A stretch of DNA of 64,000 nt. It comes from Streptomyces albofaciens JCM 4342. Its GTDB lineage: Bacteria > Actinomycetota > Actinomycetes > Streptomycetales > Streptomycetaceae. Positions within the stretch are counted from its first letter, which is position 1. Every line of letters begins with the position of its first letter. The translations under genes were made by a program, and so were the position numbers. The notes under the pieces are model-generated. The model made no database searches. It was not told where the DNA came from and saw only the letters and a program-made list of their open reading frames with translations. The stretch lies in NCBI RefSeq assembly GCF_008634025.1, contig NZ_PDCM01000001.1, positions 614,501 to 678,500 on the forward strand. The letters run 5' to 3'. Shown here in pieces: positions 30,438 to 32,101 of this stretch.

Positions 30438-30448
30438 GGTGGCGTCAC

Positions 30449-30495
30449 GCCGTTGCTCACCGGGTCGCGAATACCGCGACCCGGTGAGCAACGGC
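30449..30495. terminator. 21-bp perfect hairpin between convergent genes
   Basis: The arms 30449-30469 and 30475-30495 (GCCGTTGCTCACCGGGTCGC plus G) are perfectly complementary around a 5-nt loop AATAC. It lies between the convergent DUF418 and RelA-like genes. Confidence 0.9.
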
Positions 30496-30540
30496 GGCGA
30501 AATGGCCGTCTCTTTGGGCAGGGATTCAGGGCGGCTGTGC

Positions 30541-31821
30541 TTACCGCGTGGTCACGCCCGGCCGTTCCATCGCCCGCCGCCGCGGCGCGTTGAGCAATTG
30601 GGCCCCGGCGGGGCACGGCACCGAGGCGTAATTGCGGTTCATCTGGGTCTGGAGCTGGGCCCGGCGGCTGCCGCTCGTTTTCGGGTGGTGCGCCTCTTCG
30701 TACAGCTTCGAGCTCCGTTTCTGGGCGGCCTGGCTCTCCGGTGTGTGGAACTGGAGCTCGTACGGGTGGCCCGAATCGTTCGCCCGCCAGGCGGTGTTGA
30801 TTCCCTTGTATCCCCGCGGGCGGGCCCACGTGTTGGACCAGCGGAGATTCGCGTTCTTCCACTTGGCCAGCAGACCGGTGGTGTCCTTGACGCCTTTGAC
30901 GTACGAGGCGTCCGGCCACTGGAGGATGTAGCGCACCGAGTTGTAAATCTTGTCCAGGGCCTCGTCCACCGTCTCGGTGGGGTTGTTCTGCATATCGCGG
31001 GCGACCGAGCGCTTGACGGATTCCGGGGACCGCTTGCGCTCGTCGAAACCGACCACGGTGGCCTTGGTCTTACGGGCGATGCTGCGGACCTGGGGGGTGA
31101 TGGTGTGTTCGGCCTTCTTGGCGCGGGCGAGGAAGACATTGACCTTGCGGAGGTCGGCCGCGTCGATGGAGAGCCCTTGCCAGCTCCAGCCGTGGTCCTT
31201 CTTGAGCTGCTTCTTCTTGGCCGGCGGCTTCGGGGCGGGCGGCTTTTGGGCGGGCGGCTTCTGCACCGGGGGCTTCTTGGCGGGGGGCCGCTGAGCGGAC
31301 GGCTTCGGCAAAGACGGCTTCTTGGCGGCGGGATCTTTGGGCGTGGAGTGGCACGGGGGGCAGCCTGCCGGCTTCCTGGCCGTCTGCTTCTTGGGGCGGG
31401 GCTTCCGCACGGTCTGCTTCTTGGGCCGCGGCTTTCTCGGGGTCTGCTTCTTGGCGGCGGGCTTCCTCGTACCGGGATCTTTGGGCGTGGAGTGGCACGG
31501 CGGACAGCCTGCCGGCTTCCTGGCCGTCTGCTTCTTGGGGCGGGGCTTCCGCACGGTCTGCTTCTTGGGCCGCGGCTTTCTCGGGGTCTGCTTCTTCGCG
31601 GCGGGCTCCTTCGCGGCGGGCTTCTTCGCCGCGGGCTTTTTCTTTGCCGGCCTGTCGGCGGACGGTGTGGGGCAGCTATCGGCGGACTTCTGTCTGCCCT
31701 TGGTCTGGGAACAGGGGAGCTCGGTGGCGTGCACCGGCCCAAGACTGAGGGCGGAGGCAAGAGCGGTCGCCGTCACCGACCAGGTGACGGCCCGAAAAGT
31801 ATGAGCACGGTGGATTCTCAT
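30541..31821 (-). CDS. Secreted RelA/SpoT-fold nucleotide pyrophosphokinase-like protein with Lys/Pro stalk
   Basis: A 426-residue protein. Residues 1-32 are a signal peptide ending VHA. Residues about 57-207 are a Lys/Pro/Ala repeat containing two 48-residue copies, each with GCPPCHSTP. Residues about 225-402 have the RelA/SpoT synthetase pattern: GFDERKRSPESVKRSVARDM (nucleotide-binding R-x-K-S-type motif), a D/N-x-x-R strand (YNSVRYIL), GYKGIN (equivalent to NGYQSLH) and YELQFHTPES (equivalent to VEIQIRT, catalytic Glu355). Secreted nucleotide 3'-pyrophosphokinases are known from Streptomyces morookaensis. The usual Mg2+-binding Asp appears as Asn294, so activity needs proof. It may alternatively be a toxin-like effector. 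Confidence 0.7.
   Translation of the reverse strand: MRIHRAHTFRAVTWSVTATALASALSLGPVHATELPCSQTKGRQKSADSCPTPSADRPAKKKPAAKKPAAKEPAAKKQTPRKPRPKKQTVRKPRPKKQTARKPAGCPPCHSTPKDPGTRKPAAKKQTPRKPRPKKQTVRKPRPKKQTARKPAGCPPCHSTPKDPAAKKPSLPKPSAQRPPAKKPPVQKPPAQKPPAPKPPAKKKQLKKDHGWSWQGLSIDAADLRKVNVFLARAKKAEHTITPQVRSIARKTKATVVGFDERKRSPESVKRSVARDMQNNPTETVDEALDKIYNSVRYILQWPDASYVKGVKDTTGLLAKWKNANLRWSNTWARPRGYKGINTAWRANDSGHPYELQFHTPESQAAQKRSSKLYEEAHHPKTSGSRRAQLQTQMNRNYASVPCPAGAQLLNAPRRRAMERPGVTTR
31330..31617. repeat. Two tandem 144-bp repeats encoding the stalk
   Basis: Copies at 31330-31473 and 31474-31617 are nearly identical and contiguous (48 codons each). Within each, a GTCTGCTTCTTGGG subrepeat recurs about every 33 bp. 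Confidence 0.88.
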
Positions 31822-32042
31822 GTAAGCAAACGCTTCCTCTCGTTCAGCCGCCGTAGATGCCGCGGAAAAAGGGTGTCGGCATTACGGGGCGGAAGGGATG
31901 AGTACGGCGAGAGGTACAACTGGTACAGAGCCGTTACGGTAGTTGTGCCGAACGGGCGTCGCTTACTCGAATGGACGATGCGGCCGCAACCGATCGCCCG
32001 TCATCAAAAAGGACGTTTCAGCCATTTGCTGGCGCAATGCAC

Positions 32043-32081
32043 GAGGGCCGTCGTTCCCGAGCGGCGGGAACGACGGCCCTC
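32043..32081 (-). terminator. Terminator of the NlpC/P60 gene
   Basis: GAGGGCCGTCGTTCCCG, loop AGCGG, CGGGAACGACGGCCCTC: a perfect 17-bp stem 21 bp past the NlpC/P60 stop. Confidence 0.88.
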
Positions 32082-32101
32082 GGCCGTGTGCGTGGGGCGT
32101 C

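What the first reader, a model, noticed from the sequence alone, without database searches (positions are those of the whole stretch)
30541..31821. Secreted RelA/SpoT-fold protein on a repeated Lys/Pro stalk
Seen: a signal peptide, a roughly 150-residue Lys/Pro/Ala stalk, then a C-terminal domain with the ordered motifs of RelA/SpoT synthetases (R-x-K-S-type nucleotide motif, GYKGIN, ELQFHTPES with Glu355). Known: Streptomyces can secrete nucleotide 3'-pyrophosphokinases, and RelA-fold domains also serve as toxins. Inference: this could be an extracellular enzyme making pyrophosphorylated nucleotides, tethered to the cell wall or to polyanions through its very basic stalk. It departs from the pattern at the metal-binding position, where Asn294 stands for the usual Asp. 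I found no neighbouring immunity gene, which argues for a secreted enzyme over a toxin that acts on its own cytosol.
Basis: partly seen in the sequence, partly recalled or inferred. Interest (0 to 1): 0.75.

Follow-up and report, generated by a model that had tools for sequence, protein, structure and literature searches.

The report
Secreted alarmone-synthetase relative lacking catalytic aspartate
This Streptomyces gene encodes a secreted relative of a recently described exported enzyme that makes bacterial alarm signals, carried on a long positively charged stalk, but the metal-site residue that enzyme needs has been replaced, a change that arose at least twice in this sub-family, so it is probably a much weakened or dead enzyme that the cell nevertheless keeps.

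Summary
In detail: 30541-31821 (-) encodes 426 aa with a signal-peptide-like start, a Lys/Pro stalk of about 175 residues, and a RelA/SpoT-type synthetase domain. The class is already published: the domain is a relative of SaEAS (PDB 8VX3), the Sec-exported alarmone synthetase of S. albidoflavus (mBio 2025, PMC12691689). What I did not find in that paper's main text is the stalk and the loss of the catalytic Asp. Asn294 aligns with SaEAS Asp121, whose Ala mutant is inactive. Asp stands there in 155 of 155 other rows of my alignment (9 stalked, 146 unstalked) and Asn in 12 of 12 rows of two separate stalked lineages (S. rimosus group, S. chrestomyceticus); one origin is rejected (AU p = 9.5e-5). 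The other named pocket residues are kept in this protein. In the S. rimosus lineage selection on the domain is relaxed about threefold but is not neutral; three neighbouring genes show no such shift. Best reading: an exported, probably catalytically dead or strongly weakened synthetase, retained for binding or scaffolding. No activity was measured.

The parts
30541..31821 (-). whole gene, 426 aa, exported-alarmone-synthetase relative with basic stalk
   Evidence: ORF; only match in its own genome at E <= 0.001
31723..31821 (-). signal-peptide-like N-terminus, residues about 1-33 (n-region with Arg/His, hydrophobic core, VHA|TE)
   Evidence: sequence by eye; no predictor run
31198..31722 (-). 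Lys/Pro/Ala stalk, residues 34-208, net charge +50, six Cys including two CPPC
   Evidence: composition; HC2 histone-like Pfam hit below cut-off, E 4.3e-8; 15-nt units and 144-nt duplication
31316..31603 (-). two 144-nt tandem copies in the stalk, 94% identical
30541..31197 (-). SYNTH (RelA/SpoT-type) domain, residues about 209-426, with stop codon
30940..30942 (-). codon of Asn294 in place of the metal-site Asp (SaEAS D121)
   Evidence: alignment column: N in 12 of 12 rows of two lineages, D in 155 of 155 others
30757..30759 (-). codon of Glu355, the second acidic residue of the site, retained (SaEAS E182)
30448..30496 (.). perfect 22-nt inverted repeat downstream of the gene, terminator-like
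32042..32082 (.). perfect 18-nt inverted repeat between this gene and the NlpC/P60 gene, terminator-like

Best explanation
A protein of the SaEAS sequence family, in all likelihood Sec-exported, whose synthetase domain has lost its metal-site Asp (Asn294) and is probably dead, or weaker than SaEAS by orders of magnitude, as a pyrophosphokinase, while its other named pocket residues are kept. Shown here by sequence: two independent Asp-to-Asn changes in the stalked sub-family, the same locus in Asn and Asp forms, and continued though relaxed purifying selection in the S. rimosus lineage. Inferred: after export the polycationic, Cys-bearing stalk holds the protein on anionic polymers (teichoic acid, extracellular nucleic acid, polyphosphate) and the domain binds nucleotides without efficient turnover, acting as a nucleotide-binding or scaffold protein, or as a slowed enzyme.
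For: Domain homology to SaEAS. SaEAS D121A is inactive (PMC12691689, and passages). In the related fold Mg2+ is bound by an Asp and a Glu (RelP D107/E174, RelSeq D264/E323; PMC7983052, passages), and SpoT D259N lacks synthetase activity (PMC11796413, passages); that SpoT D259 and SaEAS D121 are the same position is my inference. Asn in 12 of 12 rows of the two N lineages against Asp in 155 of 155 and in 12 of 12 distinct distant stretches; two origins, AU p 9.5e-5. At 54 family-conserved columns the window protein departs at two, L263K and D294N. Branch model, S. rimosus lineage: omega 0.167 on N branches against 0.060 elsewhere, 2 delta lnL 9.96 (p 0.0016); omega = 1 on both N branches rejected, 2 delta lnL 40.7. 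nlpC, nuoA and nuoB show no such shift. No second copy in its genome.
Against: No activity was measured. Asn can still coordinate Mg2+ weakly (general knowledge); SaEAS turns over about 100,000 per minute, so even a 1000-fold loss would leave a RelA-like rate. Glu355, Arg297, Asn342, Gln357 and His359 are kept, which also fits an active enzyme. Relaxed selection rests on four sequences of one lineage; for the window branch alone neutrality is only weakly rejected (2 delta lnL 4.7, p 0.03). No DNA of the S. chrestomyceticus lineage was available. Other conserved columns also change in the stalked clade (16 of 42 columns at 99% identity change at least once, 7 at least twice), so the whole clade may be loosened. 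Tethering by the stalk is untested.
Confidence: 0.58

Rival explanations
1. An active extracellular alarmone synthetase: Asn294 still supports metal binding together with Glu355, and the enzyme makes (p)ppGpp or (p)ppApp from nucleotides released by lysis, held near the cell by its stalk.
For: The other named pocket residues are kept; omega well below 1 on the two N branches together; likely Sec export, no adjacent immunity gene, and SaEAS biochemistry in the same genus (PMC12691689).
Against: D121A inactivates SaEAS; Asp in 155 of 155 other rows and 12 of 12 distant stretches; two N-lineage members also lose Asn342 (P0005 Val, P0016 Ser), as expected once activity is gone; omega rises on N branches in this gene and not in three neighbours.
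Confidence: 0.25
2. A gene on its way out: activity lost, no remaining function, kept only because too little time has passed.
For: Relaxed omega, and only weak rejection of neutrality on the window branch alone; extra losses at conserved positions in P0005 and P0016; some cluster representatives are short (P0001 288 aa, P0006 238 aa).
Against: Neutral evolution on the two N branches together rejected (2 delta lnL 40.7); open frame, stalk and locus kept between the window and L003/L045; 10 N-type clusters under several species names; the short representatives may be gene-calling artefacts in the repeats (their DNA was not seen).
Confidence: 0.12
3. A diffusible antibacterial toxin that enters neighbouring cells and depletes their nucleotides.
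For: Related domains sit in T6SS, T7SS, MuF and XopAD proteins (PMC12691689; XopAD-named and phage head-protein matches); SaEAS kills E. coli when kept in the cytoplasm.
Against: Catalytic Asp gone; no adjacent immunity gene; no Pfam or NCBIfam entry domain beside stalk and SYNTH domain; SaEAS itself harmed none of the three species tested.
Confidence: 0.05

Closest known systems
SaEAS, exported alarmone synthetase of Streptomyces albidoflavus (PDB 8VX3; PMC12691689)
   Different: SaEAS has no long basic stalk (crystal construct G36-P248) and has Asp121 where this protein has Asn294; SaEAS activity is shown, here none is
RelP and other small alarmone synthetases (6EWZ, 6FGJ, 5F2V)
   Different: cytoplasmic, about 10% identity, Asp present (RelP D107, PMC7983052)
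Tas1/Apk1 T6SS effector domain (6OX6)
   Different: T6SS-delivered, with immunity protein; makes (p)ppApp (PMC12691689)
XopAD-type and other large proteins carrying the same domain
   Same: domain homology (NCBIfam XopAD E 8.3e-23 over residues 227-408, far below that model's whole-protein cut-off; Streptomyces loci L047-L051)
   Different: large N-terminal parts instead of signal peptide and stalk; the Streptomyces ones keep the Asp; their export route was not examined here
HC2 / histone H1-like Lys-rich proteins (PF07382)
   Same: Lys/Ala/Pro-rich composition of the stalk (below Pfam cut-off)
   Different: composition only; the stalk here follows a signal-peptide-like start and contains CPPC motifs

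Membership tests
Exported alarmone synthetases (SaEAS type) | SYNTH domain homologous to SaEAS | tested here: met
   E 2.9e-54
Exported alarmone synthetases (SaEAS type) | Sec signal peptide | tested here: inconclusive
   typical n/h/c regions by eye, similar starts in P0002, P0005, P0007; no predictor available
Exported alarmone synthetases (SaEAS type) | isolated gene without immunity gene | tested here: met
Exported alarmone synthetases (SaEAS type) | ATP-site residues R124, K154, N169, E182, Q184 of SaEAS | tested here: met
   R297, R327 (Lys to Arg, as in 61 of 146 unstalked rows), N342, E355, Q357
Exported alarmone synthetases (SaEAS type) | active-site Asp (D121) | tested here: not met
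   Asn294
Exported alarmone synthetases (SaEAS type) | (p)ppGpp/(p)ppApp synthesis | not testable with these tools
   needs a bench assay; therefore filed as a relative by descent, not as an alarmone synthetase
RelA_SpoT (PF04607) | match to the Pfam model | tested here: not met
   no hit listed up to E 1 (HMMER's filters drop most matches above 0.1), although the fold is shared
Toxic SAS with immunity protein (Apk1/Tas1 type) | adjacent immunity or antitoxin gene | tested here: not met
Histone H1-like HC2 (PF07382) | score above the curated cut-off | tested here: not met
   33.9 bits against 40

The most novel reading that the evidence does not exclude
A sub-family of exported alarmone synthetases, marked by a polycationic histone-like stalk, has turned more than once into a secreted pseudo-enzyme or detuned enzyme: most of the pocket stays, the metal-site Asp goes, and the protein is kept as an extracellular nucleotide-binding or scaffold protein on the cell surface.
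Probability: 0.4. Interest if true: 0.65.

Novelty: new variant of a known kind. Interest (0 to 1): 0.5.

Why it matters
Exported alarmone synthetases were characterised in 2025 and their role outside the cell is open (PMC12691689, section read). Here is a natural experiment: related species carry the same gene at the same place with and without the catalytic Asp. If the Asn forms are inactive yet selected, then at least part of the job of these proteins is not alarmone synthesis, which gives a direct way to test what they are for. If the Asn forms are active, the accepted need for this Asp is wrong for this branch.

Tried and rejected
Profile alignment of the EAS domain with cytoplasmic RelA/SpoT homologues to fix the equivalent Asp gave no significant match (hhalign probability 0.1%), so that equivalence is inferred. 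Pfam RelA_SpoT was not listed. A genome-contig scan returned only 3 loci. A second genus search from another centre (E cut-off 1e-60) brought no new handle among the rows shown. Plasmid and phage searches (20 of 33 and 20 of 41 records listed) gave at best 45% identity, on one Streptomyces plasmid. Literature: of 'pseudoenzyme' + 'alarmone' + 'synthetase' one paper, on AMPylation; 'exported alarmone synthetase', 'SaEAS' or 'extracellular alarmone' gave one relevant paper among 15 listed of 17; (12 listed of 28) led to PMC7983052; 'Streptomyces rimosus' + 'pyrophosphokinase' gave two papers, one looked at in passages and irrelevant (PMC12648386), the other seen only in the listing; the stalk search gave nothing that looked relevant among 8 listed of 20. 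In PMC12691689 the words rimosus, histone, lysine, proline and pseudoenzyme do not occur in the main text; its supplementary sequence files could not be opened, so these proteins may be among its sequences. I read its main text parts 1-5 of 11 plus the concluding remarks, not the methods. PMC5566576 passages added nothing. The deep-alignment structure job was never accepted; the model used rests on 13 sequences, mean pLDDT 69.8, pTM 0.58.

Considered and dropped: sequencing error at Asn294 (seen in several clusters under several species names); a second copy with the Asp in the same genome (none); a compensating acidic residue next to Asn294 (none seen in the alignment by eye).

Rows dropped: P0019 (partial), L028 (short N-terminus), L003 and L004 (duplicates of P0005 and P0008) from the tree; L004 (Asp) from the column count. 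Of 255 proteins passing only the best 120 were listed, so Asn cases among the other 135 are not excluded. In one search a first look limited the stretches scored per genome.

Full report

KNOWN CLASS. 8vx3 is SaEAS of S. albidoflavus. PMC12691689 (mBio, Nov 2025; main text parts 1-5 of 11 and the concluding remarks; methods not read) reports that it is Sec-exported, makes (p)ppGpp and (p)ppApp at about 100,000 per minute, is the sole source of the extracellular activity in that strain, has no adjacent immunity gene, is lethal if kept in the E. coli cytoplasm, and is inactive as D121A. Sources name many relatives 'ATP nucleotide 3'-pyrophosphokinase'.

THE ASP. The crystallised SaEAS carries Ala at position 121 (I-T-A-A-V-R-Y), and the window has I-Y-N-S-V-R-Y: Asn294 stands at the D121 position (alignments). 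I collected 19 database clusters close to the window (18 of them came back from the far end of the clade and nothing new), 27 further loci (L005-L031) from a search of 392 Streptomyces genomes, of which 37 had a match, and 119 further proteins (best 120 of 255 listed). At the column of Asn294, Asn occurs in 12 of 12 rows of the S. rimosus and S. chrestomyceticus lineages (window, P0001-P0006, P0019, P0013, P0015, P0016, and L003, a DNA copy of P0005), Asp in 9 of 9 other stalked proteins and Asp in 146 of 146 unstalked ones. Twelve distinct stretches of distant relatives (L035-L053, 13 rows of which two are the same place) also have Asp there, 12 of 12. On a tree without that column the Asn proteins fall into two groups: 98/96 support for seven rows of the S. 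rimosus group, 100/94 for three of S. chrestomyceticus, the latter nested among Asp-bearing sisters; a single clade is rejected (log-likelihood 62 lower, AU p = 9.5e-5). With Asp everywhere outside, two independent Asp-to-Asn changes is the simplest account. Both lineages belong to the one stalk-bearing clade; none of the 119 proteins or 27 loci outside it has a Lys-rich stalk (at most 4 Lys in the part after the signal peptide; the protein search was limited to about 142-453 residues, and for loci only the last 120 residues before the domain were looked at).

THE REST OF THE POCKET. In the window protein R262, S265, K270, R297, R327, Y338, K339, N342, E355, Q357 and H359 are residues common in the family. 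At 54 columns that are at least 97% conserved outside the clade and kept in at least six of nine stalked Asp proteins, the window departs at two, L263K and D294N. Two other Asn members go further: P0005 also loses N342 and Y374; P0016 also G258, S265, Y338, N342, E375, P380 and L390, some of these shared with Asp-bearing sisters. Stalked Asp proteins depart at 0 to 3 of these columns. Against an adaptive reading: the clade as a whole is somewhat loose; 16 of 42 columns at 99% identity change at least once in it, and seven change at least twice.

SELECTION. DNA was available for two Asn (window, L003) and two Asp (L004, L034) orthologues. Pairwise omega (NG86) was 0.44 for the Asn pair and 0.20 to 0.26 for the three mixed pairs printed before the script stopped. 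A codon branch model on 208 codons gave omega 0.167 on the two Asn branches and 0.060 elsewhere, 2 delta lnL 9.96, p 0.0016; fixing omega at 1 on both branches costs 2 delta lnL 40.7, p 2e-10; on the window branch alone 4.7, p 0.03; on L003 alone 8.1, p 0.004. A rerun on 217 codons gave 0.176 against 0.065. The same model on the neighbours shows no shift: nlpC 0.18 against 0.23, nuoB 0.010 against 0.023, nuoA 0.053 against 0.050. So the gene was loosened but apparently not abandoned. Limits: four sequences, one of the two Asn lineages, and larger branch lengths in this gene than in those neighbours, which I cannot explain.

LOCUS. The order DUF418 - this gene - NlpC/P60 - nuoA is kept in L046/L033 and L034; in L045/L032 (the contig ends about 1 kb past the gene) the part from this gene to nuoA is kept. 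Asn and Asp forms are thus orthologues at one place in the genomes seen. The gene is flanked by two perfect hairpins, and I saw no sign of an operon or an immunity gene. The genome has two ordinary RSH genes and no second match to this protein.

MECHANISM. In RelP, Asp107 and Glu174 complete the Mg2+ coordination that primes the acceptor 3'-OH (PMC7983052, passages); E. coli SpoT D259N lacks synthetase activity (PMC11796413, passages). In my model Asn294 (model residue 89) sits in the loop just before strand 92-96 and Glu355 (150) in strand 149-154, which agrees with the description of the Asp in a loop and the Glu in a strand in RelP and RelSeq. I therefore expect nucleotide binding to persist and turnover to be lost or strongly reduced. 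SaEAS is so fast that a partial loss could leave a useful rate, so a detuned enzyme is possible. What the retained protein does is inference: the stalk should bind anionic polymers and its Cys pairs may crosslink it; the domain could bind or sequester extracellular nucleotides.

VERDICT. New variant of a known kind; interest 0.5.

Noticed in passing
window 30448-30496 and 32042-32082: Two perfect inverted repeats (22 and 18 nt arms, 5-nt loops) bracket the gene, terminator-like; the consensus terminator scan did not list them.
   Followed up: partly
window 30541-31206 against L003, L004, L034: Codon-model branch lengths of this gene (0.37-2.5) are several times those of its neighbour nlpC (0.15-0.34) among the same genomes; cause unknown, perhaps recombination or weaker codon bias.
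   Followed up: no
L047-L051: Streptomyces proteins with open frames of about 820-1180 residues carry the same domain at about 33% identity with the Asp kept; their export route was not examined.
   Followed up: partly
L035 and L037 (same-order genomes G399, G395): Relatives in which the search counted one in-frame TAG; described only.
   Followed up: no
phage records H21-H40: Head-morphogenesis proteins of Pasteurella, Haemophilus, Aggregatibacter and Streptococcus phages carry a distant form of this domain (26-31% identity in the 20 of 41 records listed).
   Followed up: no
L006, L010, L011, L013, L015: Five of 27 unstalked relatives also lie within about 1.5 kb of an NlpC/P60 gene like the window's, so this neighbourhood may be older than the stalk, although the 2025 paper describes these genes as scattered.
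   Followed up: partly
window 31198-31722 and P0002-P0018: The part before the domain differs in length between relatives (154-222 residues in rows other than the short P0001, P0006 and P0017; S. rimosus rows 165-194), as expected from slippage or recombination in the repeats.
   Followed up: partly
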